Origin: Limnoperna fortunei
Taxonomy: Eukaryota; Mollusca; Bivalvia; Mytilida; Modiolidae
Length of the DNA: 64,000 nt
Reading direction: 5' to 3'
Assembly (NCBI GenBank): GCA_944474755.1
Contig: OX104123.1
Location: 14,884,275 to 14,948,274 of the forward strand
Shown here: one piece after another, positions 2,170 through 49,790 of the stretch
How the letters are laid out: each line of letters starts with the position of its first letter
Position numbering within the stretch: position 1 is the stretch's first letter
Translations under genes and position numbers: made by a program
The notes under the pieces: generated by a model
Told to the model about the DNA's origin: nothing
Seen by the model: the letters and a program-made list of their open reading frames with translations, nothing else
Database searches by the model: none

Positions 2170-2171
2170 TA

Positions 2172-25100: not shown

Positions 25101-25141
25101 AATTTTAATTGTGCATCTAGAAGCCGGGTATTCGTCATATG

Positions 25142-25148: not shown

Positions 25149-25199
25149 TTGTTTTATTTGTACGAAACATCATTTAAAAGTGTCAATTGTCAGAATAAC

Positions 25200-25461
25200 A
25201 TGGACACCACAAAAGAGTATCTGGAGATAAACAATTACGCAACCACACATGTTTATCAAGAGCTAAGCAATTACACGACTGTTGCGGAAAGTATACCAGC
25301 AGGAAAGGACTCAATATCCAGAAAAGGTTCTAACGCCAAAGCAGTGAATAAATCTTGGAGAAACACGATTGGATTTCTGTGTCTTAATCTTTTTCTTGTG
25401 ATTATTGTTTCCATCTTGACATCTGTAGCCACGATGTATATTGCAAATAGAAAACATGAAG
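25200..25461 (+). CDS. Gene A exon 1: tyrosine tail and transmembrane helix
   Basis: It begins MDTTKEYLEI and encodes 87 codons plus one base, ending GAAG|GTATAA (phase 1). The transmembrane stretch is GFLCLNLFLVIIVSILTSVA, preceded by SWRNT. Homologous exons lie at 34689 and 42567; they share SW(R/K), FxCL, IIVS and the MY(I/V) end. I chose ATG 25200 over the in-frame upstream ATG at 25149 because all three paralogues start M(D/E)TT at this point and because 25149 lies only about 7 bp from the TATA box. Confidence 0.82.
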
Positions 25462-28400
25462 GTATAATTGATAAAAGTATTTAAATGAGAGAATCCATTT
25501 TTTAAATGTATGGTATTGTTTGTCTTTGCAACTACTATGCTTTTCATAAATGCAATAAACAATCTTCGCTAAACAAATCGCTGGTACCGTTGGAAGATGG
25601 TACCCAAACTGCATGTTTAAGATTCCTTCGAAATAACGCAAACGTTAAACGTAAATCAATCAAACCTTAACTTTTATATTAATGTAGTTAATTATTTTAA
25701 GGCTGAGATATGTCTTTTGTGAATTTTTATCTACTATATAAAGTTTTTAAATTTAATAGCAATATTGCAACAAGAAAAAGTCTTAAAAAGTATAGAAGTT
25801 GAAAAAGATCTTAAAGACTATTTAATATCTGATATATATAAAGTTGACACTAGTATTTCAGATAGTAATGCAGACATGGCAGTTTTTAAAAACTTAATTA
25901 ACAAAATCTTTCATTGAGGTAGTCATTGTCTAACTTAACTGCGAAAATTATTTTAATTCTAAGTTTTTTCTCTTTTTCTTTTTGCAAGGTATAGATAACC
26001 TTAGCCGGATTAGGTATAGGGTTTTTGAGTTTTAGTGATAAAAGCTCTATTTTAATTATTTGGATATTAAATAGGTTTGAGCGCGACTGATGAGCCTTGA
26101 TTAGACGAAACGTGCGTCTGGCAAAGTACACTATTAACTTTGGTATCTTTGAAAAAACATTTTATCTTTAATTTTATTAAAAAAGACCAAACTATAACCA
26201 ATACCACTAAAACTATAGCCTGGAAAAAACCCAGTCACTGATCATTTTTTCAATTTATCCATGCTTTGGAAAGCCTGACAAAAATTAATTGATTTGATGC
26301 TTGTTTTATGTCCAGCGGGCAGTATTTCAGCTATATTAATAAGGTGGAGAACAAGTCAACAAACAATAAATCAACGGGAAAAACGTTGACAATAGTATTT
26401 TACATAGTAATGCAGACTTGACAAAATCAGACGTGCATGTTTACATGTTCGTGGATTTGTTTTTTTTTCGTGCATGACTTAAAGCAACTAATTGGCGACA
26501 GGCGCTGCATATTCACCCATGCACATGGGTGACCCATGGTTTGGTTATTGTGTTCGGGTTACTCATTTTTGTTTTTTTTGTTGTTCCCTTTGTGATTTTT
26601 TTGTCGTGTGTGTGTCTCAATACGGATGTTGACAGTAAACTAAGGTGTTTGATATTTGTTGATCGTTCGGTTTTCTCACATTCTGAGATGCAGAAGGACA
26701 TACAATAATTACATTAGGTATGCATTTCATAGAAATCCGTCATTATCATTGGCCAAATTTGGTCACGTGCAATAACATAGCAATAACATAACACTGTGGC
26801 GTAGTATATTTCGATACGTAAATGGACATTTAATTGAATTTTGTCATACATTTCAAGTTCACAGAAAATGTGCTTCAGTCAACGTATTCAACCATCAATG
26901 AAACTTAAAAATAATGCATTTATTTCTAAATTACAACTTTTGGTTAATAGTCTTTAGATACCAGCATAGAATATTACAATATCAAACTATAATTTCTTTG
27001 GGGCATATATATGTTTAAATTTATTTTTAACTTTAAAAACAAAAAATAAATAAAAAAGAAATGAACACCAAATAAGGTCAGAGAACAGAAAAAGCGAAAA
27101 GGTAACGTTCATTGAAGTGACGAACAGTTCGTTATGTCCTGATAACAAAATAATTATCATTGTATCATTGTACTACTGTCAGTAACATTGTTAACATTAA
27201 CGTCTTTATCGGAAAGAACATATATCCGGTTGTGTTCTTAAAACAAACTTGAAACAATAAATAACAATAGATTTTGTCTTATTGTATCCTGTGCTGTTAT
27301 ATAATTATTTAAAAAAAAAACAATCTGGCCTTGACATTTCATTTATTGATATTTATTTATAAATGAATTGTACGAGAATACTGAGTTTTAATTGGCAGAA
27401 AATATTTTCTATCAGAGGATGGAAAAAAGTCATGGTCATGGAGACACGCTCTCTTTGACGTCATATATTATTCCGCTAAACGTTTGTATTGATCTTTTTA
27501 CAAAATGTAAAATTATAAACATTAAATTGTCAATTCCCATTCTTGAATTTATTTATTAGTATAAACCACAAAAAATATTTTCTCCATAACATAATTTCAT
27601 TTTTACACATTGTATAATCTGCGTAGCTTATTATATAAAACACAGCGGGAATTTTTTATCCCTTGATAAAGAAATTATTTTTTGAAGTTCTTTGTAGTTA
27701 AATTACTAATTGTGAACCTTACTCCCCATTTGTTTCCTATAGGTAAAACCACTACGCTAAATAGAAGTCTAACTCAAAAGGGAGAAACCGGTATTATGCA
27801 ACTTGCTTCTCGTTTTAAAGATCACTATCATTCGTTATATATGTCATATTAAAAATAAGATTAACATTGCCCTACAAGACATTAAATAAATCCAAACTAC
27901 TTCATAACGTCTATTGAACACTTCGTGCCAGTTCTAAATTTAATTTAGAGAAAAGGACTATATTTCTGGGACAATCGAATGACATTTTTCATTCTTTAAA
28001 CTGATGTAAGTTAATACAGCATCGGGATATTATCACAAATACAAGATAATCGAGAAAGAGTTGTTTCCTTTGCAACCATAAGTTTGACTGAAAGTGAAAG
28101 AAAACATTTTGTCACAATAAAAGAAATATTGGCAGTTGTTTACTTCATTTAACATTTAAACATTCTTGGTTAATCCAAAGAACTGATCACTTAAATTCAA
28201 AGCTATGTTTTCATGAGAAACACATATTTGTGCTGGGAAGATCAGAGCTCTTCATTTAACAAATGAAATACCATTTTTGAAACCATAAGATGTCACGTGT
28301 TGTAATATTGTCTTTATAAAAATAGTTTCCTTATTTCTGTTATTATTTTTCAAAAATGCATAATATTTTAATAAACAAAACATTTTCATAGCTTTTTTAT

Positions 28401-29564
28401 TATTTACATTCTAATTTTTAGTAATTCCGACGAGAACCGGATGTAAGTACAATATAGTTGTTAGAGTAAACAGATTTCTGTATCACATATATACAGAATA
28501 TATATACAGAATATTTATAATTTAAAAGACAAAAAGACTAGATTTAATTATATATATGGTATGACTATTATATTAGTATACCCTTTGAGCAACATAATGT
28601 ATTTGTGGCAACATAACAGTCAACATAGGTGTCCGTCGAATGAAAAAAAAAAACAAAAAAAAAAAACAAAGAAAACCAGAAAAAATCCTAATATACTGGT
28701 TTTTTCTTACTTATTTATACTTTTGGCACAAAAAATCAATTACATAATGGCAACAAGTTGTAACGTCAATCTGTTCATGTATTGGCTCAAATAACTTTTT
28801 CGCCAAATGTAATTCTTGAAAAAATGTGTTGCACAAATTGTCCAAGAGAAGATCATCGCAATATACCGACTTTTATATCACATTCTATACTATTTGCCCT
28901 TTTATTTAAAAAACAGTTATAGTTATTATTTTCCATACGTAAATAATAATGTAAACTTCTACAAAATACAAAAACACTACACAGTAAAATAATCCTATTT
29001 TTAACAACAGGTTTTAACATATTGATAGTATTAGAGTCGAGTCATGTTTGTGTCAAATCCGTACATGATATTTGAGACTGGTAGGAAAATTATGCATGCG
29101 CTGTAAAATATTTTAAAGTCAGATCAGAAATGTGTTCACGGTTTGCAGAATTGACGTCATGACGGAAATCTTTAAGAAGAAACACAATGTTGATGTGTAT
29201 AATTAACAGTATAATATTACATATTATTTTTAAAGGACATTACAGCCTCATACATTTTTATTGCTGAATTTACATATTTGCATGGTATATTTGTTAAGGT
29301 CAGTCCGGCCAAGCGGAGATGGGGTATACAGAATTGGAAAGAGGCAAGTCTACGACAGTCAATATTACGTTCTACCCACCATTTACTTTCGCTCCAGCAA
29401 TGGTATGGGGTCTCACACATTTAGATTCAATACAAACAGAAAATGTTCGTATAAACGCGGAAGTAATGAACCTTAGTTTGACGAAATTCATTCTGAAAAT
29501 TAATTCTTATAAAAGTACACTTACCTACAATGCAAAGGTGTCATGGATGGCATGCCCAAAGTAA
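25200..29564 (+). CDS. Gene A: type II membrane receptor with ITAM and H-type lectin domain
   Basis: The exons are 25200-25461, 28422-28442 and 29299-29564 (stop TAA at 29562), giving 182 residues. Residues 1-56 are cytoplasmic, 57-81 form one hydrophobic helix, and 95-182 are extracellular. There is no signal peptide, so a type II topology is inferred. The tail contains EYLEINNYATTHVYQEL: Y7-L-E-I, eight residues, Y19-Q-E-L, the canonical ITAM spacing. The ectodomain matches the H-type lectin pattern (discoidin II C-terminal domain, Helix agglutinin): FYPPFTFAPAMVWGLTHLDS, an N-glycosylation NIT, and the closing YNAKVSWMACPK. C95 and C180 may pair. It is probably a galactosamine-type sugar receptor on the surface of a haemocyte or epithelial cell. 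Ligand and signalling are inferred. Confidence 0.75.
26283..26350 (-). repeat. LINE/SINE 3' tail fragment in gene A intron 1
   Basis: 'atgtccagcgggcagtattt' followed by 'cagctatatta' matches the reverse complement of the LINE 3' end at 48,540-48,590 ('cgtccagcaagcgatatttc' then 'agctatattc'). Confidence 0.45.
28422..28442 (+). CDS. Gene A exon 2: 21-nt microexon
   Basis: It is bounded by ctaatttttag and a GTAAGT donor. With the phase-1 G of exon 1 it reads VIPTRTG and hands one T to exon 3, which makes TGT (Cys95). Both phases and the resulting cysteine, which is conserved in the degenerate copy at 38972, support it. A 21-nt exon can arise by chance, so transcript evidence would decide. Confidence 0.55.
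29299..29564 (+). CDS. Gene A exon 3: H-type lectin domain
   Basis: The acceptor is tatttgttaag. The frame opens (C)QSGQAEMGYTELERGKS, comparable to the 'QSG' start of snail H-type lectins. It continues NITFYPPFTFAPAMVWGL, then LDS, and ends VSWMACPK before TAA. The length (about 88 residues) is normal for one domain. Potential N-glycosylation sites are NIT (116) and NLS (152). An AATAAA signal lies at 29721-29726. Confidence 0.82.
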
Positions 29565-29720
29565 ACCTTATTCTAGATCAGCATACAAGCTGGAATACTT
29601 TTTCTTTAAAGAACAATAATATCATTACTTGCTTCCAAGTAAAAATGTACATTATACTGTTTGTTTGTGACAATAAATTGACCAACTACAATATATGTAT
29701 ATTTTTGTGTCCAAAAATTA

Positions 29721-29726
29721 AATAAA
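29721..29726 (+). terminator. Polyadenylation signal of gene A
   Basis: AATAAA lies 157 bp after the stop codon of the H-type lectin exon. Another AATAAA lies near 29672. Either could end the 3' UTR. Confidence 0.5.
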
Positions 29727-29739
29727 AGACCAGGTAGAA

Positions 29740-31140
29740 AAAAGACGGGTGAAGCTAGTAATACAAATAATACGTGTCAATTGCTGAAGTTGCTGTGTTT
29801 TTGTTGGTTCTCGAGCTTGGCCTGTCAAATTGCATGATTGCATTTTTGGGTTTATTGTTTGTGTCTTATTGATTGGCAGCTATTGTCTCTACTGGTTTCG
29901 GAGAACTTTCAGATCACTTCGGGTTTAATATTTTTATCCCATATAGTTTTTATCTCTTTTGGTTTTGCAGTTCTTGTGTAATCTATAGGTTATTTTGAAA
30001 TAAAATCTATTGAACATTATTCATTTAAATACTTGGTTTTTAGTATATAATTTTTATTGAGGCCAGTGTTATATTAGCATGGTTTAACTAAAGATGTTCT
30101 TCAATATCATATGTAGTAAATAATGTAAATATTTTCTGCTTCTGACACATTTGTAATGTGTGACCATAATATTACATATATTGTTACAATAACATATAGA
30201 AGGTGCAATCAGTAGTTCAAGTTTCATTATATCTGTGATCATGTAAAAATATAAGGTGCGCATGTTTCTTCATGTTGCACCTATATCTGGTAACAAAATA
30301 AGAAAGACCCGTTGCCATTTAACAATTACAGTTTTCTTGCAATATATGGTGTTTTTTATTACATTTTTCTACCAGGAGGAAAGAATAAATGTTTATGACT
30401 TGATTGATGCTTTGTTATTGCGACTTCGATAAAAGATCTGTTTAGTTTTTCTGCAGAAAGTCGGTGGTTTTAACCGGGTACACCAGGTTCCTGCCTCCAT
30501 AAAAATGTTGCTGTAAATTTGCTGACTATCATAAAAACAATATTGTCAACGTAATAATATTGCAACATGTGTTCTTCCCGACATTAAGACGTTGATATAC
30601 TGTTTTAACTGTTTGAACATAGCATGCGTAAAACTGTGACCTGGGTATGTAAAGATATAAAACTATAGAAGGGAGAATTAATAACATGGGAGATAATGCG
30701 TACATTAATTTGAAATTGCCCTCTTTCGTCAAATTTAAACAAGTAGGCGCAATATAGAAAAAGGCTAAATATCTGTCTTTACCTAATATTTCATCGTTTT
30801 TCAGCGGCACTTCTTCTCTTTTATACATCCCCTTTTCCGAATTGCTTTATTGTTTGTAACTTGTTTTCGTCTTAAATACAGCTTAAATGTTTCGCGCTGG
30901 AATTACCAATGAATCATTATAAAAAGTTACGTTAATTATACATCTCTATATAAATATAGTGGAGAAAATCTAGCACAAACTTAATAATTAAATCAAAGAT
31001 TGACAATACATCTTATGATTTTCATGTGAAAAGAAAATAATTAAATAAACTGATAGTTTTAAAGGTGGCCAATGAAGACAATGACTAATTTTTGCAAATA
31101 ATAATATTGAACTTCTTGGTTATCCACTGAACTTATCTCA
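29740..31140. other. Intergenic DNA between gene A and locus B, left part
   Basis: AT-rich; I see no exon-like segment with splice sites and no recognisable domain. The minus-strand open frame at 30,529-30,828 has no known motif. Confidence 0.35.
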
Positions 31141-31189
31141 CAGAGTTTCCCAGTTGAATGTGCACATGGTAAGAAGGGAAGCACAGCAT

Positions 31190-31790
31190 TTAGTAAGTTA
31201 CCATCATGAACTAACTTTCCCGTCCAAATGTACTTTTGCTAAATAAGAAATAAGAAATCCATTATGAAATTAAGGATTGAATAAAGTTTAAATATTGACT
31301 CTCAGGCCATTTTATGTAGATCTAATTATCGAAAGTTATATTTGGTTCAAAGCAATAACATCTTGGTACTAAAAGTATGTCCTTCAAATTTCAATATTCT
31401 TGCAGGAAAAAACTGGAGAAAAGAAACTGGTATTGTGTGTGTGTGTCTGTGTCCGGTGTGTGTGTTAAAATAAAATATATTTATAGTCGCAACAGTTTTT
31501 AAGCTTAATAAATGCATTTCACTTCTGTTTCAGTTGAGTAATTTAGCATTTAACAACTAGTTACCATCTTGAACTATTTTCCCACCCAAATGCATTATTG
31601 CTACATAATTCAAGAACTAATTAAATCCAGTATGAAATTAAGGATTGAATAAAGTTTAATTATTGACTATCAGGCCATTTTATGTAGATCTAATTATTGA
31701 AAGTTATGTATTGTTCAAATCAACAACATCTTGGTACTAAAAGTATGTCCCTAAAATATTGCAATAAGCTTGCATGAAGAAACTGGAGAT
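31190..31790. repeat. Direct duplication of about 215 bp
   Basis: 31,190-31,410 and 31,555-31,775 share 'atgaaattaaggattgaata', 'aggccattttatgtagatct' and 'catcttggtactaaaagtat' in order, with about 85% identity by eye. Between them lies a 'gtgtgtgtgtgtctgtgtcc' microsatellite. It is non-coding. Confidence 0.65.
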
Positions 31791-33744
31791 CAAAATGCAT
31801 GTGCTTATTATACAATTATTTCAGACTGATGTCGTATTTTCATATACATGTATATATTTAGATTTCAAAAGTTAATTAGAAAACAAAATACAAATTTCGC
31901 AAATGAAACAATTGCTCATTGATTCCTTTAATTGCAATAGTAACGGGGTTTATTTTTATTTAGCTGTTTAACTTTCAGTTATGCATTACCTTTTCAATAA
32001 TATATCATATATGTTGTTTATAATTTTGACACGCTGTTGTTATTTACTGGAACCTAATGTATATCTTATGTAAAAGCAAGCAGTTGGTGTTTCGAGTTTT
32101 GTACAGTCTCGGATTTTTACCATTTCTGTAATTGTATTTTCATACTTATGTAAGTTTCTAACAACGAGACATAACAACTTTGTTATAAATTCAGTTATTG
32201 GTTCACTTTCTATTAACAAAGTTTTAATTGGATAATTATTTTTAGTACTATGTTTCTATTAATATCCATTAATGAGTATTTACGCTCATTTTTTTCTAGT
32301 CAAAATCGCTTTTTATATAGAGCCACTGTAGCTTACGCACGGCACTAGGTAGGTGCATTCCATCAAAGCACCAATTCACAAGTATTTTTTATACTTTTCT
32401 AACTTCAATATGTAAAAAGGGGGGATACAATATTTTATAGAATTTTTTGCTATTTGCTCTGACACTTCTGGTTGGGCCCACACATTGTTTTGGTTTAATT
32501 TTGAATAAATTATTATTATTTTTAGTTTTCTAAATATTTTTGGTAGGAAAAACAATAGTACATATTTGTAGCTACTTAAAGTCTAGGATTGTATGTAGTT
32601 TTATCTAAAGATTGTTATAAAACGTAGTTGTTAAAACACAAATCCAAATAATGTTAAATTTTAAAATATTTTGTGTAAAATAAAAGTATAAAAACCTTTC
32701 CATCTTTGTTTCCACTTTAGTAGAGACTCAGGTCCAGTGATCGGATCCTTAGTATTTAATTAATAAGGAGGCTGTCTAGTTCACTTACAAAGTCAGCAGT
32801 CAAACCTACGGCTCTGGATGTCATAAAGTGTTCTTTGTCATTCAAAAACCCAAACATAAAAAGTGAAATTGCAAACAATACATAAAATAAAAACACAAAT
32901 CAATACTTAAACGTCAATTTAAATAATCTTCCTATTACACAATGAAGGAATTAATATCAAATTTTATTATGGCAGCAAAACTACAACGAAACATTTTCTT
33001 CAGAATGAAATAAAAAACAGTACTCATTAACTGATCACGAAAAAATGACTAAAGCACCGAGCATTATAAACTTAAACAGATAAACATTTACAAGCTATTC
33101 TTGTTATTGCCTCTTATCCTGTTGATTAAATGTTTGGTGGAGTGTGAAAATGAAAATTTGTGATCTTAGAGGAAAATTTTAAAGGTCAAATGTTCATCTT
33201 TTTAATTTGGTAAAAAAGATTACTTTAACTCTTTGGATCTGTTGACTACCTCAGTGGGATATTTTTTTTTAAATCCATTTCAATGTCTAGATCTATGTCA
33301 TTTTTTCATGCAATCATTGTCATTTTCTTTGAGAATATGTGAACCGTTCACCAAAAACAGCTATGATAAAATCCCATAGCTGTACACGTGAATAAGGTTA
33401 TTATAAAATGTATGTAGGCTATAGTATTTAAACCGTAGATAAAATGGTGTAAATTTAAGCTTTAAATCACTCAATAATGAAATAGAATAATTCCAGCTTT
33501 TTTTGAGAAACTACAAATTAAATCATTTCAAACCTTATCCAGTACACTCACTAAAGCAGGATTTACTCAACCATGTTGACTTTGTTTAAGTTGCTATTGT
33601 AAACTTGGCGTCTGTCTTCAGAATCAATTGATGTATGTAACCCTATTCTTTTGCACATTTTTAATATATATTAATATCCCATAAATGAACTAGTACTTTC
33701 CATCCAAAGCTAACATGTTATTATATGACATTATATTACTAACG

Positions 33745-33960
33745 AGGGCGGTCGAGATTGGGTCCAGTTCTGGTCGAGACACATTCAGTCTTGTCAGAAT
33801 AGTCGAGACTGATTCACACAATAATCAGACTAGTCGAGACTCGGTCGAGTAAAAAATCAGATCATTTCAGAGTAATTCTGACTTTTCAGTCAAATCAAGA
33901 ATTTTGTCAATAAAAGTTATGTAAAATTAAGACCGATTCAGACCGGTCGAGTAAAAATCA
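33745..33960. repeat. 'gtcgaga/gtcgagt' word-rich segment
   Basis: The heptamer gtcgaga, or gtcgagt, recurs six times with 'cagac', 'cagact' and 'tcagtaca' companions. It is an irregular low-complexity array with no coding potential. Confidence 0.5.
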
Positions 33961-34688
33961 GTACAATTCTGTACAAAAACTAACCTTTTTCAGACATTTC
34001 CTGTTTTGTATTGATACCTAAATATATAATGATGATAATGCTTTATATGTGATCGATTACTACAGATGGATTATGAAAACGGTGTTCTTTTTTTAACAAA
34101 TAACGTGGCGAAAGTGGTTATACGGCATGTACAAACTACACAATTAAAGTAATGTTCTTAGATTTGAAAATGATGTCTGCTGTATACGAAACGGATTTGC
34201 TTAACTTTCTCATTCACCAGATTTCACCTTTAGGTTATATTTAGTTTAAGGTCCTCATCCTTTATTTCCTGTATTATTTGTTATTGTTTAGGCACGTTCT
34301 CTTTATTGATTTTTTTATTACGCCTCATTATATCCTGCTTATATACATTAACCTTCTGTGCCGATATAATGCTCACGAAATGGTTTACATCATTAACAAA
34401 AAATAAATTCCAATCATTTCACACTAGTGCTAGGGAACAACCCAAAAATAAGAACCTCTTAAATAGGCCAACTTTATTAACTAATCTACAGTAACGTTCA
34501 TTTGACTAGTATCGGTAACCTACCTTTAAAACATGCTACCCATTGAGGAAAACTTGCCCGGTTTTCCAAACAATGCTATTGTTTGTTTGCAACAAAATCA
34601 CTTCTTAATGCAGAGTGCAGCGATTGTATATAATTGTTTGGTTTGAAAGTTACTTGATTTAAATTTCTCAAACATTTCTCTTAACAAG

Positions 34689-35090
34689 ATGGAGACAACA
34701 CATGAATATATAGATCTCGACAATTACGCGACAATTGAAGAAAATGCTCCAGCTGCAAACAAAGCGGTATCTAAAAAACGTTCTGACGACAAAGATCTAA
34801 AAAACGTTCTGACGACAAAGATCTAAAAAACGTTCTGACGACAAAGATCTAAAAAACGTTCTGACGACAAAGATCTAAAAAACGTTCTGACGACAAAGTA
34901 GTGGATATTTCTTGGAAAAGCAGGATTGCATTTATATGTTTAACTCTTGTACTTATGATAATTGTTTCTGTGTTGACATTTATAGCCATGATGTATGTAA
35001 CAAAAAGAAGATATGAAGGCATCACTTATGATAGTGTATATATCTGTCATATGGGAGCCAATGCTTGGCGTTTCCTCAAGTGAATTATTA
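34689..35090 (+). pseudogene. Locus B exon 1: broken membrane-anchor exon
   Basis: It begins METTHEYIDLDNYATIEEN, parallel to genes A and C (TATATAA at 34627-34633). Then a 26-bp unit ('gatctaaaaaacgttctgac' + 'gacaaa') is present five times at 34770-34899. The four extra copies add 104 bp, shift the frame by two and hit TAA. The transmembrane part survives in another frame (SWKSRIAFICLTLVLMIIVS). The splice donor that reads GAAG|GTA in A and C is GAAG|GCA here. With the decayed lectin exon at 38,972, this locus is most likely dead. Confidence 0.75.
34770..34899. repeat. 26-bp coding minisatellite, five units
   Basis: There are five near-perfect units inside locus B exon 1. Genes A and C have a single equivalent (AAA..TGTTCTGATGGCAAA). 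Copy numbers of one, four or seven would keep the reading frame; the five seen here do not. Confidence 0.85.
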
Positions 35091-35294
35091 CATAACCATC
35101 ATGTATTATCAAACATAAGCTTTCTTAATATCACTTGTTTCTCTTCGGGGTTGAGGTATTCTTTTTACAGTTTATTCAGAAGATTATAGCAAGTACAAAT
35201 ATTAATTACTATAAAAACTTGGATATCGCAGCTAACATTTTTCAACTTAAGTTTGTAATTGAAGTGATATTGTAAATATATTTACGACTTATCT

Positions 35295-35505: not shown

Positions 35506-36185
35506 ATATTAATATACATTTTTAAATTTTTAAATTGAATAAAAATATGCATTTGAAAATTATTTTTTTTAAACATTTAAATAAAAAACATAAATTCAAA
35601 TTAACATTTTTTATGTTATAAGTTTCTTTTTAATTGTCAAATTTTAAATAAATATTAATTAAAAAATAATTAAAAATAATTAAAAATAAAATTAAAATGT
35701 AAATTTTACACGTCAAAAATGAAATAAAATAGTCGAGTTATACAGACTGGAAATCCATGTCAACTCAATAAAGGGTGTGATATGGATCCCTAGACCCTTT
35801 GTGAAATGATTTGACTGTATCACATATGCACAGCATATTATTACAGAATATGATAAATATTGGCAAATAGGTGATACATAACAAAATGTATGTGTATCAA
35901 TTGATTTAATCAATAATAAATGTAGTCGCTATATAAATTGCACCTTAATTTAAATGTGACGTGATGAAGAATATATTATACTTAAAACATGAGGTATTGC
36001 TGTGACATCCTTATTTTGTTCACTTTGCTTTGTGTGCTGTGTGTGCGCAGAGGGGGTGCGACAGAGTATCTTTGTAATACAGATACATACATATGGACAA
36101 TGTTGAATTGACCTGAATATTGTATACTAGATATACTACAGATATGAACACGATATTTTTACTATTTGAAACCAAACTGCAGCCG

Positions 36186-36222
36186 TATAACATTTGTGTG
36201 TGTGTGTACGTGCGTGCGCATT
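36186..36222. repeat. (TG)n microsatellite
   Basis: 'gtgtgtgtgtgtacgtgcgtgcgc', an imperfect TG/CG array in the locus B intronic region. Confidence 0.7.
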
Positions 36223-37259
36223 TTGTTTCTTCGTTTTTTATCATGCATTTAGGAACATTTTGAGCTTCAATGCCTACTTTACTGTGTCATTCATAACTTA
36301 AAGTTGATAGTTCTTTGGCAAATAATTCAGATCTTGTGAACAGTTCTGAGTACTTAATAGAGGTACGCTATCCAGCGGCTGACGATCATGTGGCGATATC
36401 ATTGTTTGGAAAATTTATCGCAGCTATCAGCAGCTGCTGGAACCGTTATATAAAGGGTACTGCCTTCCTTTTTCATGTATAGTAACTTTGGTCAATAGAC
36501 GCCATTTTTTGTTAAAATCTTTAACTGGTGCATAAGATAATGAGACCATGTGTACAAATAAAAAGTCACGACAATAAACGATATGGATAGGCACAAACTA
36601 TCCCTATGAATACATTTAGGTTAAAAATGATTTTTTTGTATATAAATAATCAACATTAGAATTCATGTATTTAAGAAATACAAGGGATTTGGAAACACAT
36701 TCAGCTTATAAAAATCATCTCACGAACTTAACAACCTATAGTGTAAAATTATAAATACGCAGCATGGAATAACATTCTTGTAGTATAAATAAACATTATT
36801 TACGAAATAGTTGCTTATACTTACCGTGTATGCAAATTGGAGAAAAGTGGTATGACATGGTTAAAAAATAGCTTTACAAGTTAAGACATATAAGTAATCA
36901 ATAGAATTTTACTGAATTATTACAAAAAAACCAAACTATTTATGCAAAGTATGTACTTTACCAGATGTAATGGCATGGTCAGTGTAATCATTATTTTTTT
37001 TTAAGTAAGTACCAATTTTAAAAGTCTGTTCATCTGATTTGGCACTCTACCAAATGAGTACGGTTGCTCTCTAAAAGTGCACATGGATTCCATTGCCTTG
37101 AAATTTGGCTAACGTTTTTACGTAGCTCTGCTATTCGAAAAATTGTTAAAGCTTAAATTCATCATAACGTTAAAAAAAGACATGTCAAGGTTGAAATCTG
37201 CTATCAAAACATCGTCATCCAAAGTGAGATTGCACGAACTGAAAACGTAAACGTGGCAA

Positions 37260-37868
37260 ACTTTCCCGGCTGTAAAACAGATTCCAGACAAACTGACTCT
37301 ACCAATGACCGCCCGACAAGTGGGCGATAGACGTAAAAATCTGTATCAGCGACGAGTCACGTTTTCAGCTACAAAAAGACGTGATGAGAGCATCCGTGTA
37401 CACCGTCGCAGGATTGAACCTTTCTCCTTCTGTGTCAAGGAAGTTGATACATTGGGTAGAGGTAGCGTTATGATGTGGGCGTCGATGTCTAATTACAATA
37501 AAACATAACAGGTATACGTCCCAGGCAATTCAACTGTTCATAGGTACAGAGACGAAATTCTCCAACCTCACCTGATGTGCTTAGTCGACCGACAGAGGGA
37601 GTTGTTTCAACAGGACAACGCCAGGCCCGACATAACGATATTAACAAGGGACTATCTTGGACAGGACATCATTAACATGCTAACATGGCCTTCTAAATCA
37701 CACGGATTAGAATCCGCATGAACACTTGTGTGATAAAGGTACGCCCCAGAACATCAATCAGCTCCATCAAATGTTGCAACACTTCCACGTAATTACGTAT
37801 GAACATAGCAAAGAGATGCAGAGCAGTGTGTTCAACTGGGGTGGTCATACACCGTATTAACGTAACGT
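37260..37868 (+). pseudogene. Tc1/mariner-like transposase fossil
   Basis: Fragments in several frames follow a Tc1-family transposase in order: an ISDESRF-like first-Asp region (37,340-37,370), RGSVMMWASMSNYNKT, QVYVPGNSTVHRYRDEIL, the second-Asp QQDNARPDI, and WPSKSHGLES in the place of the WPSxSPDLNPIE block. The final acidic residue and following helix are lost. There are several stops and frameshifts. It has inserted in the locus B intronic region. No clear termini are seen. Confidence 0.8.
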
Positions 37869-38971
37869 GACCGAAAGTATTCTTATCTGTGATCTCTTAT
37901 TTTCCAATTTCTAAGGATGGACTGTAATTATTTTTGAATTAAAATCATTGTAAAATCTTTATTTAAATGCATATACTAAAGTTTTTAAAAATCCAATAGC
38001 GTGTGGTTTTTTCTTTTTTCTTTGCATAGTATATTTTGCAATTAATATTCATTTTTTATTGATAGTTTCATGTTAAGAAAAATGTAATCTAAAGGTACTA
38101 GTATGCCTGGAAGATAAAAAATTCGAGCAAATAAATGCATTTTTTCGCATTTGCACAATATATTTCTATATCACGTAAAAGTACATTGACGCAAAATTGT
38201 TTTCTAATTTACATTTAAGAAGAGTTTGAAAAATTTGTGTAAGCTGATAAAATGATGCTAACAAATCAGCTTACTTGTCCATAATGATACGATCAGTGTA
38301 GTTCCTTTACACGAATACATTAAGATGTTAATTTGTTTTGTGCATCTTAATAACTTTGTACAACGAATGTCTGTATATCATAGAATATTAGACAAAAAGC
38401 CAACAGCTGGTTATAAGACACAAAGTCTATCGTGTATTTCTTTTGACAAAAAACTCACTACACGTAATAAGCAACAGAGCAACACTTTTATTGCTATTAT
38501 TCATCGTATAATAAATGTTCCCATGAAAACGATCCATTGAACCGGGGTTAAGGGAAATCTTTGCTAAATGTATATAAAGCACTACCCTTGAGTACGAACA
38601 CACAACGAACAAAGAAATTTTACAAATTACTAAATCTACCGCATGACTTTTTAACCACAAATCAAAAATTTAAACTTTTTATTTGAGTGGTCTGAGACCA
38701 TTGTACAAATTGAAACGTTAATCATTTGAGACCTTCTCGTTTTTCTCAATCAATAATTACAGGTAATTAACGAGTATCTCATTTTCATCATGAAGCGCTA
38801 CCGCGCATCATTGAACGTGCTTCGGTCAACGCTTTCATACGTCAATGAAACTTCAAAAGAATTAATTCAATTCTTAATTATTGCTGAAATTTACATATTT
38901 ATTTTGCATGATTCTTGCAGATTAATAATATTGTACATTAATACTGATATGCGCATACGGTTATTACAAAG

Positions 38972-39200
38972 GCGAGTCTGGTCAAGCTGAGAAAGAGTTT
39001 ACACACTGGGAGACTGGCACTCTAACATAGTCACTTTAGGTTCAGCCCATCATTTACCACCGAAAACAATGGTATGGGGTCTCACAAATTTGGATTCATT
39101 TTATTCACAAAATGTCCGTAAACACTATGAAGAATATAGTGTCAATTCGTAAGGAGGAAAAAATGCTAACGCGTCGTAGATGGCACGTCCACTGGCATCT
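38972..39200 (+). pseudogene. Locus B: degenerate H-type lectin exon
   Basis: After acceptor ttattacaaag it opens (C)ESGQAEKEFTHWETG, matching the start of the gene A lectin exon. It later matches 'atggtatggggtctcacaaa' (MVWGLTNLDS) in a shifted frame. Stops and frameshifts follow, and the VSWxAC end is gone. The upstream 40-60 bp also resembles the gene A intron. It is a decayed copy of the gene A ectodomain exon. Confidence 0.75.
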
Positions 39201-39855
39201 ACAATAAAATTTCTTGAAGGCTCATACGGGGGATTTTTTCTTGTAACATTGGTTTATAAATCTGTCTGGGAGAAATTGGTCAAATTTGCAAAAATCAGTG
39301 TACTCACTGAAATCTTTTGCACACCTGATCTAGAAATCTAGACACCGTATGTATGAGAAGATGAAATATTGCTGTACAAGTGAGGAAAATTTATAATTTT
39401 GAATTTAAAATGGAATCGTTTTTCGTACATGTTTGTGCTGAGATAACCATTGGTGTCATTTTTGAGGTTTAAATCTAAAAATAATGTAGATGAAGCTGTT
39501 TTTGTGCTCTCTTTTACAAAATAATAACTTTAAAGTAGTGATCGCATGGTGTTTCTGCAGCTTCATACCAATCGAAACTATAAAAAGAATAAACTCCATT
39601 ACAAAATATTAGCAAGAACAGAAGTTGAAAATTCATACCAACGATTTTTTATCATTTTAGATCATTGCTGACTATCAGTTTTTAAAGCTATCATTATATG
39701 TTAGAAACTAACAAGTAAAATCTTTTACACTAAGTACCATTTAAATTTTGTGTTCTAAGCGCCAACTTCTTATCAATATTCATCCTCTCTAACTAATACA
39801 TTGTACATATTTTAAGTTGATGCATTAATTTAGAGTTTCTTTTAATTAAAAGGAC

Positions 39856-40112
39856 TTATGGTTAACGTAGTTCGTCTGCTATTGATCACGGGGTCTGTCA
39901 ACACTTAGATTGCGAGTTCGATTCTCACCGCAGGCAGGGTGTACTCGACTCCAATCTGAATTGATAAGGATTGCCACTTTTCCTACCGCAGGTTGGGGGT
40001 TTTCTCTGGGAACATCGGCTTCCTCCCCCAATACAAACTGGATACCATGATATACCTAACAAAATTGCTGAAAGTGGCGATAAACAGAATAAAACAAGCA
40101 AACAATTAAAAC
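39856..40112 (+). mobile_element. tRNA-derived SINE copy, near full length
   Basis: The head is 'atggttaacgtagttcgtct', then 'tgatcacggggtctgtcaac', B box 'agttcgattctcacc', 'aggcagggtgtactcgactc', 'cttcctcccccaatacaaac' and tail 'gctgaaagtggcgataaaca' plus an A-rich end. It is the most complete of the copies here. Confidence 0.72.
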
Positions 40113-40119
40113 GACCTCG

Positions 40120-42500
40120 CTGAGAGAGTTTTGCCAGAGTTTTGGGACACTTTGACGATGAATCTAATATTTATCTAATGAAAAAATAATGGTCGACATA
40201 ATAAGTTTGTTTAAAGACGTTTCACACATTTGATCTGTATATTATTGTAAAAGCAATAGTTTTGTCTTTCAATGTCCCGAATTTGAGATATAATGATAGC
40301 CTAGTTCATATAAGAGTTTGGTTTGTTAATTAGTTTTGTTGGGGTTTTTGTTTGTTTGTTTTTTTTCCATTGTATTGAGAGTATTTGTCTAATAAATGTG
40401 TTCACTTGTACCTCTTTTTTGATAGTTTTTGATCTGTTGATTCTATAACTTTATAACATTTATTTATTTGTCAATTTTGCGCATAAATATGGCTTAAGTA
40501 AACAAACAACGTACAAAGAGATTTCTGAGAAATGTAAATACTTAATCTTAATTTTAAATTGATTTTCATATGAATCTCAAACAAATTTACACTTTAAACA
40601 AGAAAATTTGGGTTTTTCTTTTCAGGACTTCCACTGGAAAAACCCGTATGCAGTTTTAATACTTAAATTGATAAAATGTACACACGACAAACATCAAAAT
40701 GGATAAATTTGTTAAAGATACTTTTCGTGACTTCCGTGCATTGTGTTAAGAGTTGATGTAGTAAGAATTTTTAATGAAGGTTTTACAAAATTAAAATTTG
40801 GTGTTATTATATAATTGCTGCATAACGTTTTATATCTAATAAAATAAATGTTAAAATATAGCTATTATTTTTCCCATGACAATACTTGAAGAGTGCTTTT
40901 TTACCCATCAGTTGCACTTTAGATATATTTAGGACGAAAATTGGCTAACAAATAATGTATCAATAGGAGTAATTATGAGAGAACAATTTGAATGCAATTG
41001 TGACTGCCTATACAAACGTATTTAGAGTTTTGCTAGAGACATATATTTTAGCTTGTCCCTAAATGATCTTCAATTGATTGTATTAAAAATAGATAATAGC
41101 ATATGAATTTGGAAGTATTTTTATTAGCGTATAGCGTTAGATGTTAATATTGAGAATTAAAGCTATTTATCTCACACTGTTGAGACAGAATGGTACACAT
41201 TCCATACTAACTATAAATAACGCGATTAAATTGGCTATGCTAAATATAGCTTCCAAACAAGAAAATTTAAGAAAACGAAGTTCATACTGGCGTGTGTAAT
41301 TTTGGACGATATGAAATGAATTAAGGATAGACGTCAACTGACAACAATCACGAAGACCCCAGACACCGGATAGTGACGCCGGCGACTCAAAATACAAAAA
41401 TCCACGCTCTGGGTGGTCTAGAAATTAGCAATTCTGCATGTTCTGAAAGGAGCAACCGAAAGAAATACTTGTTTTCCATAACAAATGATCCAAAGTATGA
41501 ACTTTAGAACTTTGTTCTGCTTGTGGCCCTTTTCCGAAATAAAAAGTGTTTCAATTGTGTTCATAATAGATAGTTTAGGCGGTGAGAGAGATATATGAAT
41601 AGGATAAAAGTTGGGAAGATATTGGAATGGAAAAAAGATAAATCCATATCAAATTATCTATTGACCATCTTTGATACACATGCATTCCGTCGCTTAAAAT
41701 ACTTATGCACGGGATTGAAATATACTCCATATGACCGTTAAATTCAGTGTCCGTATTTAAAGGTATATTTTTGCAAGATTATAAAGATGTAATACTTTGT
41801 ATGAAGTTAACTACTACAGATGGATCATCGAAGCGTGTGTTTTTGTGTTTTATGCGAATAAATGAAGTAGGTTTTTATATAAATAAAACGGTTTTTCGAA
41901 TAAATAAAGTTGCGCATGTGGTTAAGCGGTTTATACAATTACACAACAAGGTGTTGTACATTGTTATGCACAACTACACAATCAACTTCCGCTTTTCCGA
42001 AAGCTCAAAATTTGAAACCGTTTTGCGCTGGTAGCTTGTAAGAAATTAATCAATTATTAGATATCCCAACTGAAAGGGATATATATTTAATAACGATTCA
42101 GGAATTGTGATTGCAACAACAACCAAAACAAAATAAGAGGTTAATATTAATATTGTACACAATTATTGAAATATCCGTATGTCACTTGTTAATTTGCCAA
42201 TGCACCAGAGTTCAAAACTATGTTATTTTTATTTTAAGTTTGTCATCTCTTATTTCCTGTAATTGTTTTGCTATTTTTGTTTGTTTATGCACGCTTTCTT
42301 TATTGATTTACGATTTGTATCGCACTTGATTGTATCATGTTACATTATCCACCATTTAAACAGTAACTACTTGTAGTATTGCTAAGATAGAATTTAAAAA
42401 ATGCTTCACACAGATGACGCAAAGGAAGACGAGACCATGATGCCGAATAATGCTACTTTGTTTTTAACAAAACCACTTCTAACTGTAGATTACGTCAGTC
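40120..42500. other. Intergenic DNA upstream of gene C
   Basis: No gene is supported in most of this stretch. From about 41,800 to 42,566 the sequence is homologous to 34,050-34,688 upstream of locus B (shared 'tactacagatggat', 'tcttatttcctgta', 'ctttattgat'). The 5' flank was therefore duplicated with the gene. The open frame at 41,747-42,034 falls within this duplicated flank and its counterpart at B is not open. Confidence 0.5.
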
Positions 42501-42505
42501 ATATG

Positions 42506-42512
42506 TAAATAA
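42506..42512 (+). promoter_or_regulatory. TATA-like box of gene C
   Basis: TAAATAA, in the block 'catatgtaaataattgtttt', is in the same position as TATATAA of A and B but with one changed base. A cAMP-response-like 'tacgtcag' is at 42,491-42,498. Function is inferred from position and conservation. Confidence 0.4.
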
Positions 42513-42566
42513 TTGTTTTGTTTGAAAGTTACATGATTTTAAAGTATCAAACTTTTCCCAAGTAAG

Positions 42567-42915
42567 ATGGACACCACACCTGAATATCAAGATCTTAGCA
42601 AAGACAGTACAATTCCAAAGGCATCCAATTATCTGGAGCTAAACAATTATACGAGACCTGAATGTCAAGATCTTAGTAATGACAGTACGATCCCCAAGAC
42701 AACCAATTATCTGGAGCTAAACAATTATACGACAATTGAAGAAAATATTCCAGCAACAAACGAAGCGATATCTAAAACATGTTCTGATGGCAAAGTAGTA
42801 GATATTTCTTGGAGAAGCAGGGTTGGATTTATATGTTTAACTTTTGTACTTGTGATAATTGTTTCTGTGTTGACATTTATAGCCATGATGTATATTACAG
42901 AAAGAATAAATGAAG
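42567..42915 (+). CDS. Gene C exon 1: duplicated tyrosine module and transmembrane helix
   Basis: The exon encodes 116 codons plus one base. EYQDLSKDSTIPKASNYLEL (6-25) and ECQDLSNDSTIPKTTNYLEL (32-51) are a 26-residue direct duplication; the first tyrosine of the second copy has become Cys33. The remaining YxxL/I sites are Y7, Y22, Y48 and Y54. The helix is GFICLTFVLVIIVSVLTFIA. It ends GAAG|GTATCG in phase 1, as in gene A. Confidence 0.82.
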
Positions 42916-45900
42916 GTATCGCTTATGATAGTGTATGAATATGCGATTATATCTGCTCATTAGGGAGCCAATGCTTGGCTTTTCCTCAAGTGAATTATTA
43001 CTAAATCATCATGTAAGCAAACATAATCTTTGTTAATATCACTAGTTTCTCTTCGGGGTTGAGGTATCCTTTTTACAGTTTATTCAGAAGATTATAGCCT
43101 AGTACAAATATTAATTATTAAATAAACTTTGATATCGCAGCTAGCATTTTTCAACTTTGTATTTGAATTGACATTTTTAATATATTTAATACTTATCTGT
43201 TTCTGTCATGATTACATAGTTGCGGAACTTGAATTATAGAAACATATGCAATACTGTCCCTTCCAGGCAACTCCAAGGACCATTATTTCGTCGAAAGACC
43301 GGAAACTTCGTTCACAAATTTTTAATCATAATGGTTGACACCTATATCAAATTTTAATCCAGTGTCTGCAAGTGTTTAAAAAAAGTCTGGAAAGCTGTTA
43401 TTTCCTTAAGTCCAAGATCTAAAAAATCATAATACCGGAACTAAAATCAACAGCACTGAAAATGAGATTCGGTCATCGCTTTTAACATCAATGAAACCTA
43501 AACAAAAATCTTAATTACAACTCTTGTTTAATAGCAGTTAGGTGCGAATATAGAATGTTCCAATTTCAAGCCACGCAAATTCTAGATAATCAAGAAAGAG
43601 TTGTTGTCTTTGCAAGCATAAGTTTGACTTAGAGTTAAATAAAACATTTTATCATAAGAAAAGAAATGTTGGCAGTTGTTTACTTTATTTAACATTTAAA
43701 CATTCTTGGCAAATGTTATAAGAAAAACTGCTTGTCGTTCTACTATAGATACCATTTGGTTATTATTATTATCTTGTGACAATATTACTGCAAATATCTT
43801 TCCCAGTTTTTTAATTCATGGTTTGTGCTACAAGGAGTATTGATACACCTAATAATGACTAATGATGTATGATACCAAACCATCTTTATCAAAACGGCAA
43901 CGCACACGCTACAGAAATGGAAGCAATCGGGATGTTTGGCATGCCATAAACCAACATATACTAACCAATTCTTTTGAAATGCCTGTACTAAGTCAGAACC
44001 ATTGCTGTAGTTGCTATTTTTGTTTTGGTTTTGCAGTTTTTTGGACTTTGAGTAATGGATTATTTTTTTTGACATTTTCGTTGTCACGTGATATTTTGTC
44101 ATTTCTTCGTATTGATAATATTATATGTAATAAATTAAGCACCCTTTAAGTATTTCCGATGTTTGCCAAACATTACCGAGATCTGTTCCCTTGAAAAACA
44201 ATAGACATCCGGGACACCAAATATGATCACGTGGTCTATTATGGTCCGGATACCTTAAGTAAAAAATGACTTGAACGTTTATTAGTTTTATTGGAAGTAC
44301 TGGTCCAACTGCATGTCAATGTCAACAAGGGCAGAAAGGAGAGCGAGGCCAGAGGTGGAGAAATGAGATCAAAGCCACAGGGGGTATTAAAAATTAGTAA
44401 ATTAAATAATTACATAAATGGACCAAGCCATCCTACCTAAACAGATTGTAAGGTTTTAAACACAAAACACACTTTAACTTGTATCTGTCCGTTAAGTGTT
44501 TACTTATGGCTGCACATAATTTAATATGACATTTTTCAGCAAGAATATGCGATAAAGAATGGTCATTGTTTGGAAGATATTGCTACTACTTTGGATCTGA
44601 CTCCAGACGTGGAGTGATTCTCAGGTACATATAATTATTTGAATACTAAACTTATTATGTGAAAATTATAATTATTTATATACAATAACTATTACGTGAC
44701 ATTGTGTTATTAACTCTAATAATTGTTGCTATCTATCTGACACGATTACATGCGAAGATTAACTTAAACTGAATCAGATATGTAAACATTGGTTTAATTT
44801 TACAACCGACGTAATGTTCTATGTGTACTATGTGTATGTGTGCTTTAAAATTCGGAAATGCATGCAGTCGTTTGCAAAACAATCGCATAATAATGTATCT
44901 AATTTTATTTGTATTAATAAATTTTACACATTAAAATAGCTACAATAATTTGAATAAATAAGAGTTTATTATTTAGATCAAATAATTATTGTTTGCATCT
45001 TCACTTGTTGTCTCATCTTATTCATCATCTTAACGCTTGTAACGACTCGATATAACGAGACATATCACGTAAGGAACTTATCCATATGAATATTCCTGTT
45101 TGTAGCTTCATTGTAAACGCATGTCTGGCAATTTAGTTAAAATAGAAGATGCAGGGGAAAACTGGTTCCTGAAATCAGTTACTGAAGGTAACAAAGTTTT
45201 TTTAAAAACATATATTCAAATTAGTACTGAGCATCAATAATTGTAAGTAGACGCATGCACTTGATACAATACAAAAATGAGAGGAAACCTCGGCTGGAAT
45301 AAAATACACAGAAAACTAAAGTAAAGAATTTTGAACCACAGTACGCATTATCGATTAAGGTAGGTGATCAGCAATGGTGAGCTTTTCACAACGATTGTTC
45401 AACCTCAAATATTTAGCCATGTTATTGTCTCAACAAAGAGGAAAGGTATATTACTCAGTACAAATAGATCAAAAGCGATTTGTGGGACAGAATATCTAGT
45501 GTGACGACTCTCGCCACTAGTATCTACATTAGATTTTCAAAGGTGAATCGTTCAATAATCGAAAAATTTTCCACGGCTAGTTTTCAGGTTTAATAACCTT
45601 ACTATCCACGACAAAAAAGGATAGTCTATAAATCGACGCACCAGCACCTTTCAATTTGCCCACGGAACAAATTTTTTTTATTTAAATTTAAAAAAGGAAA
45701 TACAGGACCAGCAGTCCAAGTGATAAAAGTATACAATATATATATCCAAACAAATTAATTAAGTATAATGCAGAAATATGAAAATTCTGTCATAATATCA
45801 GTAAATAAAATTTCAGCTGATCAAACAGTACATAAATTTCACTATGATATGGATATTTAATATTTCAGATATAATAAAAAACGCATGGATTGGAGCTAAT

Positions 45901-46101
45901 GATTTAGATCAGGACGGAACGATGAGGTGGGTATCAGACAATTCAGAAGTTGCTTTGGGCTTTAGCGATTGGGCACCCGGGGAACCAAACAAGCGTTCTG
46001 ACGAACATTGTGCTCAGCTTGTTGAATATGAATCGGGACGTGGATTAAAATGGAACGACGACAAATGTTCTTTACAAATAAAATATATTTGTAAAAAATA
46101 G
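42567..46101 (+). CDS. Gene C: type II membrane C-type lectin with duplicated tyrosine tail (frameshifted)
   Basis: The exons are 42567-42915, 44540-44624, 45106-45187 and 45869-46101, about 249 residues if the frame were intact. The order is a cytoplasmic tail with YxxL motifs (1-82), a transmembrane helix (about 86-109), then a six-cysteine C-type lectin-like domain. The domain has WIGANDLDQDG, EPN (mannose-type), WND and a YIC end. The phases are 1-1, 0 and 1. Exon 2 as given is one base short near 44605-44610: CYYFGSDSR leads out of frame before W-S-D-S-Q, so translation would stop in exon 3. This is either a sequencing or assembly slip or a recent null allele. The domain is otherwise undamaged. 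It is a probable calcium-dependent sugar receptor that signals through phosphotyrosine. Confidence 0.7.
44540..44624 (+). CDS. Gene C exon 2: start of the C-type lectin domain
   Basis: The acceptor is gacatttttcag. It takes the phase-1 G of exon 1 (Ala) and reads RICDKEWSLFGRYCYYFGSD, the N-terminal long-form cysteine pair. The 3' end reads W-S-D-S-Q only in the next frame, followed by CAG|GTACAT. The expected exon would be 86 nt; 85 are present. Confidence 0.78.
45106..45187 (+). CDS. Gene C exon 3: middle of the C-type lectin domain
   Basis: The acceptor is ttcctgtttgtag. It reads LHCKRMSGNLVKIEDAGENW and then FLKSVTE, the usual 'C...G..L..I....E..FL' pattern. It ends GAAG|GTAACA in phase 1. 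Confidence 0.82.
45869..46101 (+). CDS. Gene C exon 4: C-type lectin sugar-binding end
   Basis: The acceptor is tttaatatttcag. It reads (D)IIKNAWIGANDLDQDG, then MRWVSDN, DWAPGEPNKRSDEHCAQL, LKWNDDKCSLQIKYICKK and a stop. EPN and WND are the calcium/sugar motifs of mannose-type C-type lectins. AATAAA follows at 46180-46185. Confidence 0.88.
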
Positions 46102-49742: not shown

Positions 49743-49790
49743 ATGAGGTTTAATTCTGATTCCAAAAGGTTGAATTTTATTTGGATGTTT

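What the first reader, a model, noticed from the sequence alone, without database searches (positions are those of the whole stretch)
25200..46101. One membrane-anchor exon paired with two unrelated lectin folds in a tandem cluster
Three homologous anchor exons (25200, 34689, 42567) all end, or once ended, GAAG|G in phase 1. Downstream of A and B lies an H-type lectin exon (B decayed); downstream of C lie three C-type lectin exons whose first accepts phase 1. The anchor and tail stay while the sugar-binding fold is swapped, which recalls lectin-like NK receptor clusters of vertebrates but with exchange of whole folds. This is the most system-like structure in the window.
Basis: partly seen in the sequence, partly recalled or inferred. 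Interest (0 to 1): 0.88.

Follow-up and report, generated by a model that had tools for sequence, protein, structure and literature searches.

The report
Receptor cluster with swapped lectin folds
A row of related cell-surface receptor genes in an animal genome keeps the same membrane-anchoring and signalling tail while the sugar-binding part is usually one protein fold and, in a few copies, a quite different fold that elsewhere belongs to secreted lectins.

Summary
The three anchor exons are homologous and co-oriented, with an H-type lectin exon after A (relic after B) and three C-type lectin (CTLD) exons after C. The window's own genome settles what the window could not. Two searches find the anchor at 15 places, all on contig 13 at 14.91-16.17 Mb, + strand. 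Nearest downstream partners: CTLD at 7, H-type at 3 (one intact), undetermined at 5. Units D, E and I read through as 206-222 aa type II CTLD receptors and unit A as a 182 aa membrane H-type lectin, with GT-AG introns and matching phases. Unit C itself is out of frame by one base. H-type lectins elsewhere start, where I could see it, with signal-peptide exons. A and D are sister anchors sharing their intron to window ~28390; soon after, A has the H-lectin neck microexon (28422-28442). Monophyly of the H-anchors is rejected, so the fold partner changed at least twice, probably by recombination inside phase-1 introns. The tails carry ITAM/ITIM-like YxxL motifs. I read it as a type II lectin-receptor cluster with exon-shuffled recognition domains. 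No transcripts were available; topology, binding and signalling are inferred.

The parts
25200..25461 (+). Unit A anchor exon: ~55 aa N-terminal tail with YLEI-x8-YQEL and YTTV, one TM segment, ends GAAG|GT phase 1
25462..28390 (+). Unit A intron shared colinearly with CTLD unit D (73.8-78.0% identity in the four longest blocks of 193-697 bp, the first of which includes most of the anchor exon)
   Evidence: blocks A+43..3175; identity drops after ~28390, in AT-rich sequence
28036..28174 (+). Relic that resembles a reverse-transcriptase RNase H fragment; genome search found it only in units A, C, D, F
   Evidence: 4 matches; the tool warns that very common words are skipped; Pfam on the F copy only: RT_RNaseH E=2.5e-5, at its cut-off
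28422..28442 (+). H-lectin neck microexon (phase 1 in, phase 1 out), like the microexon before other H-type CRD exons of the genome
29299..29564 (+). Unit A H-type lectin CRD exon with stop codon
   Evidence: H_lectin 7.6e-13; SLL-2 and Helix agglutinins; dN 0.23-0.29, dS 0.76-1.28
34689..35018 (+). Unit B anchor exon, frame-broken by a 26-bp x5 tandem array (34769-34898); GC instead of GT at the donor
38970..39215 (+). Unit B H-type lectin relic (limits approximate)
42567..42915 (+). Unit C anchor exon, open; tail lengthened by a 78-bp x2 repeat; YQDL-x11-YLEL, YLEL, YTTI; phase 1 donor
43454..43714 (+). Intron blocks of unit C colinear with the intron of H unit A; similarity to C's partial duplicate F ends at ~43729
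44540..44624 (+). CTLD exon 1 of unit C (phase 1 in); one base short against paralogue D, so out of frame with exon 2
45106..45187 (+). CTLD exon 2 of unit C (phase 0 in, phase 1 out)
45869..46101 (+). CTLD exon 3 of unit C with EPN and WND motifs and stop codon

Best explanation
This is part of a tandem cluster of type II transmembrane lectin-receptor genes. Each gene has one anchor exon (cytoplasmic tail rich in YxxL/I motifs, then a TM helix) followed by a phase-1 intron and a lectin cassette. The usual cassette is a three-exon CTLD with sugar-site motifs. In units A, B and K it is an H-type lectin cassette; in A this is a neck microexon plus CRD exon, the same pair that elsewhere in the genome follows signal-peptide exons. 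Shown by sequence: the homology, the phases, the read-through frames of A, D, E and I, the shared introns, and that the H-anchors are not one clade. Inferred: the partner was changed by unequal recombination inside homologous phase-1 introns of tandem units. Inferred from tail motifs and known receptor biology: the lectin domain faces outside and binds glycans, and clustering leads to phosphorylation or endocytosis through the YxxL motifs, so swapping the cassette changes sugar specificity while keeping the output.
For: 15 anchor places in two searches, all C13 14.91-16.17 Mb and + strand. Joined frames to the native stop with GT-AG introns: A 182, D 206, E 220, I 222 aa, with H_lectin 3.3e-12 and Lectin_C 7.2e-22, 6e-18, 1.4e-21. 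Anchor tree: A+D 99.4/100, B+C+F 94/92, E+K 54/77; monophyly of A, B, K rejected (AU 4e-60), A+B 6e-7, A+K 6e-74, B+K 0.017. Intron shared between H and CTLD sisters: A/D to ~28390; K/E 82.6% over 625 bp (upstream and anchor) plus blocks of 198 and 408 bp within 1.6 kb behind the K anchor; B/C 75.6% over 779 bp, reaching ~280 bp into the intron. The 139-bp intron relic had 4 genome matches, in A, C, D, F. H-family signal exons and neck microexon. H exon A against 8 relatives dN 0.226-0.288, dS 0.763-1.28. Tails: 23 of 32 Tyr in YxxPhi, shuffle mean 5.1, 0 of 5000 reach it.
Against: No transcript evidence. Of the three H-units only A is intact (B and K decayed). C is out of frame by one base. 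Five of 15 anchors have no assigned partner (F, 15703072, 15722581, 16155324, 16174806). Behind unit K's H relic a third CTLD exon follows at 16141685, 24 kb from the anchor, so the H relic may not have been its only cassette. Anchor dN exceeds dS for A/D, A/I and D/I (3 of 21 pairs), so the anchor of A shows no clear constraint. Introns to the CTLD are 14.5, 9.1 and 10.1 kb in D, E and I. Tail motifs come from related copies. E+K support is weak, and SH (0.19) does not reject B+K. The signal-exon scan missed one of three controls and left four intervals out.
Confidence: 0.82

Rival explanations
1. The lectin exons are separate secreted-lectin genes with their own signal exons that happen to lie downstream of orphan anchor exons.
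For: H-type lectins elsewhere do use signal-peptide exons ending in phase 1; phase 1 is a common phase (general knowledge); some anchor-to-CTLD gaps reach 9-15 kb.
Against: No signal-exon candidate in the C, E, I or A intervals, one in D against two on the control strand; B, G, Hh and K not scanned. The order anchor then lectin, both + strand, recurs at 10 units. A, D, E and I join in frame to the stop.
Confidence: 0.08
2. A combinatorial locus: one anchor exon is spliced, by read-through or trans-splicing, to lectin exons of several units, so fold exchange happens in the RNA as well as in evolution.
For: Units are co-oriented, and splice phases fit in A, D, E, G and I; lectin folds alternate along the array; K has an H relic and then a CTLD exon further down.
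Against: A and C carry similar upstream regions of their own (25134-25211 against 42498-42578, 80%), and AATAAA hexamers follow the H-A and C3 stops within ~110 bases (common by chance in AT-rich DNA), as expected of separate genes.
Confidence: 0.1
3. A dying cluster: decayed receptor remnants whose H/CTLD alternation is only debris of duplications, with no working membrane H-type lectin.
For: B, G, Hh, the lone third CTLD exon at 14961534 and K carry frame breaks or stops, and C a one-base frame break. The anchor of A shows dN above dS against D and I.
Against: A, D, E and I are complete. H exon A has dN well below dS against 8 relatives. A mix of intact genes and pseudogenes is usual in receptor clusters (general knowledge).
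Confidence: 0.15
4. The fold exchange is an assembly artefact: collapsed or misjoined copies of a tandem array.
For: The array is repetitive; a perfect 26-bp x5 array and a one-base loss are the sort of thing assemblies get wrong. Raw reads could not be seen.
Against: Three separate pairs show it: B/C 8 kb apart, A/D 54 kb, K/E 1.1 Mb. The sisters differ by 10-17% in DNA around the anchor (A/D 90% and B/C 89% over 147 nt; K/E 82.6% over 625 bp), which makes misjoining unlikely (inference).
Confidence: 0.04

Closest known systems
VIgLs of gastropods (FREP, CREP, GREP; HREP with H-type lectin)
   Same: One constant N-terminal module combined with different lectin folds in mollusc genes (PMC9334734, passages seen; PMC8878817, passage on HREPs seen).
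   Different: The constant part there is an Ig domain behind a signal peptide; here it is a type II membrane anchor with tyrosine-motif tail, no Ig domain was found in A, D, E, I, and the swap is recorded inside one tandem array.
Vertebrate NK-complex and CLR clusters (Ly49/KLR, DC-SIGN, langerin, CD23)
   Same: Tandem array of type II membrane proteins: N-terminal tail with YxxL-type motifs, one TM, C-terminal CTLD (comparison recalled). Listed PDB sequence matches include phospholipase A2 receptor, mannose receptors, CD23, DC-SIGN and langerin (best 60 of 117; 30).
   Different: CTLDs of C, D, E, I keep EPN/WND; there is almost no stalk between TM and CTLD; some units carry an H-type lectin instead, which I know of in no vertebrate cluster (recalled, not searched).
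H-type lectins (Helix pomatia agglutinin, SLL-2)
   Same: PF09458 CRD; 68 residues aligned to 3wmp and 2ce6.
   Different: Unit A is joined to a membrane anchor; a Trp kept in the other eight copies compared is Tyr in A.
Bivalve C-type lectins
   Same: CTLD family, very numerous (154 in Mytilisepta virgata, PMC5549309, passages seen).
   Different: The passages seen do not describe this anchor family; they say no H-type lectin had been characterised in bivalves by 2017, with six transcripts found.

Membership tests
H-type lectin (PF09458) | Score above the curated family cut-off | tested here: met
   48.8 bits against cut-off 24 for the exon; 46.8 for the joined protein
H-type lectin (PF09458) | GalNAc-type sugar binding by an oligomeric CRD | not testable with these tools
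   a Trp shared by eight relatives is Tyr in A; no assay
C-type lectin domain (PF00059) | Score above the curated cut-off, full-length domain | tested here: met
   D 78.6, E 66.0, I 77.6 bits against 22.6; in unit C only exon 3 passes on its own
C-type lectin domain (PF00059) | Sugar-site motifs EPN and WND (meaning recalled) | tested here: met
   C, D, E and I carry both; G has EPK and WDN
Type II CTLD receptor (NK/CLR-like) | N-terminal cytoplasmic tail, single TM, no signal peptide, C-terminal CTLD | tested here: met
   D, E, I: 19-residue hydropathy maxima 2.66-2.85 in the anchor exon, CTLD to the stop; no topology program was run, orientation is inferred
Type II CTLD receptor (NK/CLR-like) | ITAM/ITIM/hemITAM motif in the tail | tested here: inconclusive
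   ITAM-spaced YxxL/I pairs in 4 of 9 tails (A, C, F, I); ITIM-like hexamers in 5 of 9 (A, C, F, I, Hh); phosphorylation untested
Type II CTLD receptor (NK/CLR-like) | Orthology to vertebrate NK receptors | not tested
   no phylogeny with vertebrate receptors was made
VIgL | Ig-superfamily domain next to the lectin domain | tested here: not met
   Pfam at E<=0.001 found no Ig domain in A, D, E, I; the paper seen says such Ig domains are hard to detect automatically, but no residues are left over for one between TM and lectin in these models

The most novel reading that the evidence does not exclude
Probability: 0.3. Interest if true: 0.88.

Novelty: new variant of a known kind. Interest (0 to 1): 0.72.

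Why it matters
Exon shuffling is usually inferred from old, blurred junctions. Here sister genes with the same anchor and the same intron carry different lectin folds, one junction can be placed within some tens of bases, and relatives of the donor (H-type lectin genes with signal exons) are still in the genome. It gives an invertebrate parallel to the tandem type II lectin-receptor clusters of vertebrates, with a swap of whole folds, and makes a simple question testable: does the recognition domain change while the tyrosine-motif output stays.

Tried and rejected
Relatives in the protein database: one search with the C anchor joined to its third CTLD exon gave 112 candidates and none at E<=1, so comparison rests on the window's own genome. 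A strict signal-exon scan missed both positive controls and was discarded; the relaxed scan is the one used. The ungapped 147-nt tree misaligned unit E, which is one codon shorter; it also rejected H-anchor monophyly (AU 6e-6) but was replaced by the aligned tree (228 columns; B and G enter with their 3' part only). A stalk-like open stretch in A (25762-25914) and D was considered as an exon: it can take phase 1 but ends in TGA and is interrupted in D, so it is not in the gene model. The 139-bp intron block was first suspected to be an independently inserted repeat; four genome matches, all in this cluster, speak against that, with the tool's warning that very common words are skipped. Joined exons, the CTLD pieces and the C reading were cut a few bases off; A, D, E, I and C are the corrected readings. 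The DNA trees were not rerun. The H-exon tree separates A, B and B's duplicate from K and the others (90.3/93) but attaches the distant copies implausibly, so one capture or several is left open. Literature: four searches answered and their listings showed no description of this anchor family; seven failed, so nothing is claimed about absence from print. Passages of PMC5877582 on ITIM concerned an oyster Siglec. HPA sugar-site residues, ITAM/ITIM consensus and EPN/WND meaning are recalled.
Full report
What was checked. A and C end GAAG|GT in phase 1. B ends GAAG|GC and is frame-broken by a perfect 26-bp x5 array. The H-type exon after A is a clear PF09458 member with sequence matches to SLL-2 and Helix agglutinins. 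The H exon after B is a relic. The three CTLD exons after C are real.

The wider cluster. The window is contig C13:14884275-14948274 of a 1.34-Gb, unnamed assembly. Two anchor queries (16 rows, 14; B takes two rows in the first) find the anchor at 15 places, all on C13 at 14.91-16.17 Mb and all on the + strand. I read 264 kb around and including the window. Partners downstream: CTLD for C, D (14963642), E (14992348), G (15056387, decayed), Hh (15067884, third exon with a stop, no second exon found), I (15080372), and for 15728345 by the position of a third CTLD exon at 15736237 only. H-type for A, B (decayed) and K (16117223, H relic with two stops at 16125194). F, 15703072, 15722581, 16155324 and 16174806 are unassigned; F has only a weak first-exon-like piece at 15051355. 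A lone decayed third CTLD exon lies at 14961534, and an H relic at 15040531 in a partial duplicate of the B-C stretch upstream of F. Two further weak anchor fragments (15024572 on -, 15048153 on +) were not counted.

Gene models. Joined at GT-AG sites with matching phases, A (25200-25461, 28422-28442, 29299-29564) reads 182 aa, D 206, E 220 and I 222 aa to the native stop; A also stays in frame if the microexon is skipped. Pfam sees H_lectin in A and Lectin_C over nearly its full length in D, E and I. A 19-residue hydrophobic segment (mean hydropathy 2.59-2.98) lies in each of the five anchors tested, behind 44-85 residues without a hydrophobic start (by eye), hence type II topology by inference. 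The splice phases 1-0-1 fit in D, E, G and I. Unit C does not read through: its first CTLD exon is 85 nt and, with entry in phase 1, leaves the frame that exon 2 needs; the alignment to D shows one base missing. That may be decay, polymorphism or an assembly error.

Origin of the two lectin cassettes. H-type relatives elsewhere (27 match rows in all, K twice) share the acceptor phase where I printed it. In 11 of 11 loci looked at (L010-L016, L018-L021; L017 and L022-L028 not looked at) a microexon precedes the CRD exon, 10 of them with an AG acceptor, L021 without, and unit A has its counterpart at 28422-28442. L012 and L018 carry a signal-peptide exon upstream that the scan finds; L010 has a candidate signal ORF that the scan missed, as it lies beyond its length limit. 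In the other loci the first exon was not found within the 1.5 kb held. So the H cassette, where its start is visible, belongs to secreted lectins. CTLD exon 3 relatives are numerous (150 scored of 381 candidates); their upstream exons were not read.

The exchange. A (H) and D (CTLD) are sister anchors (99.4/100). Their DNA is colinear from the anchor to window ~28390, with 73.8-78.0% identity in the four longest blocks (193-697 bp; all seven blocks 73.8-96.2%), D having several kb inserted. After that identity drops (0.63, then 0.45 per 20 bases) and A meets the H-lectin neck at 28422; the AT-rich sequence blurs both edges. B (H) groups with C and F (94/92). K (H) groups with E (54/77 in the tree, 80% protein identity, 82.6% over 625 bp of upstream and anchor DNA plus intron blocks of 198 and 408 bp). 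Forcing A, B and K together is rejected (AU 4e-60), as are A+B (6e-7), A+K (6e-74) and B+K (AU 0.017, but SH 0.19). The fold partner therefore changed at least twice, perhaps three times, on the anchor tree. The CTLD tree puts C with D (99.7/100), while the anchors put C with E and G against D and I (94.7/93), a second sign of reassortment. The intron of H-unit A and of CTLD-units C and D and of F shares a 139-bp relic resembling a reverse-transcriptase RNase H fragment, with four genome matches, all here (lower bound by the tool's own warning): the introns are most simply the same intron by descent. In C the similarity to F ends at ~43729, just behind that relic. I infer unequal recombination within these introns.

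Constraint and function. H exon A against 8 relatives: dN 0.226-0.288, dS 0.763-1.28. Anchors: dN/dS 0.27-0.93 in 18 of 21 pairs, above 1 for A/D, A/I and D/I, so A, D and I show no purifying signal in the anchor by this crude measure. Tails: 23 of 32 tyrosines are in YxxPhi against 5.1 in shuffles (0 of 5000); ITAM-spaced pairs in 4 of 9 tails, ITIM-like hexamers in 5 of 9. These are related copies, so the shuffle number overstates independence. EPN and WND are kept in C, D, E and I, not in G. I commit to this mechanism: outside lectin domain, glycan-driven clustering, tyrosine-motif signalling or endocytosis; the exchange of cassette alters specificity and not output. Steps shown: sequence, frames, phases, shared introns, non-monophyly. 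Steps inferred: topology, recombination, binding, signalling.

Tests against. The signal-exon scan found nothing in the C, E, I or A intervals and one hit in D against two on its control strand; it finds two of three known or candidate signal exons and did not cover B, G, Hh and K. A and C have similar upstream regions of their own and AATAAA hexamers lie behind both lectin cassettes, which argues for separate genes rather than one combinatorial transcript, without excluding it.

Comparison. Gastropod VIgLs are the nearest precedent for one constant module with several lectin folds, HREPs included (passages of PMC9334734, and PMC8878817), but with a signal peptide and Ig domain. Vertebrate NK/CLR clusters are the nearest precedent for the architecture (recalled). 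A membrane-anchored H-type lectin inside such a cluster, and whole-fold exchange recorded in shared introns, I regard as a new variant; absence from print is not claimed, since seven literature searches failed.

Noticed in passing
window 48763-52418 (-): Non-LTR (LINE-type) element with endonuclease, reverse transcriptase and RNase H pieces in separate frames (Exo_endo_phos_2 3.2e-23, RVT_1 6.7e-35, RNase_H 1.2e-8).
   Followed up: partly
window 37251-37721 (+): Open stretches that look like a Tc1/mariner transposase to the eye; the first piece gave no Pfam match.
   Followed up: partly
window 12562-14191: 46-bp unit repeated 36 times, open in several frames, on a C-rich strand (GC skew -0.325 over 12001-16000).
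   Followed up: no
window 42573-42728: 78-bp in-frame duplication in the C tail that adds a second YxxL module and is shared with unit F.
   Followed up: partly
window 44290-44398; G000 C13 14968118-14971814, 14998590-14998766, 15089874-15090104, 16120766-16121784: A ~100-bp repeat present in C's intron and in several copies in the introns of D, E, I and K.
   Followed up: no
G000 C13 16117223-16141912: Unit K has an H-type relic and, 16 kb further, a third CTLD exon on the same strand: possibly two cassettes behind one anchor.
   Followed up: no
G000 C13 16044276-16044494: A third CTLD exon with one stop lies between the two anchor groups, with no anchor found within 300 kb upstream.
   Followed up: no
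window 25762-25914: Stalk-like open stretch in A and D, phase-1 compatible but ending in TGA; perhaps an alternative last exon or a relic.
   Followed up: partly
window 26285-26375, 46716-46803, 61715-61801 (-): Short dispersed repeat, also beside several H-lectin loci.
   Followed up: no
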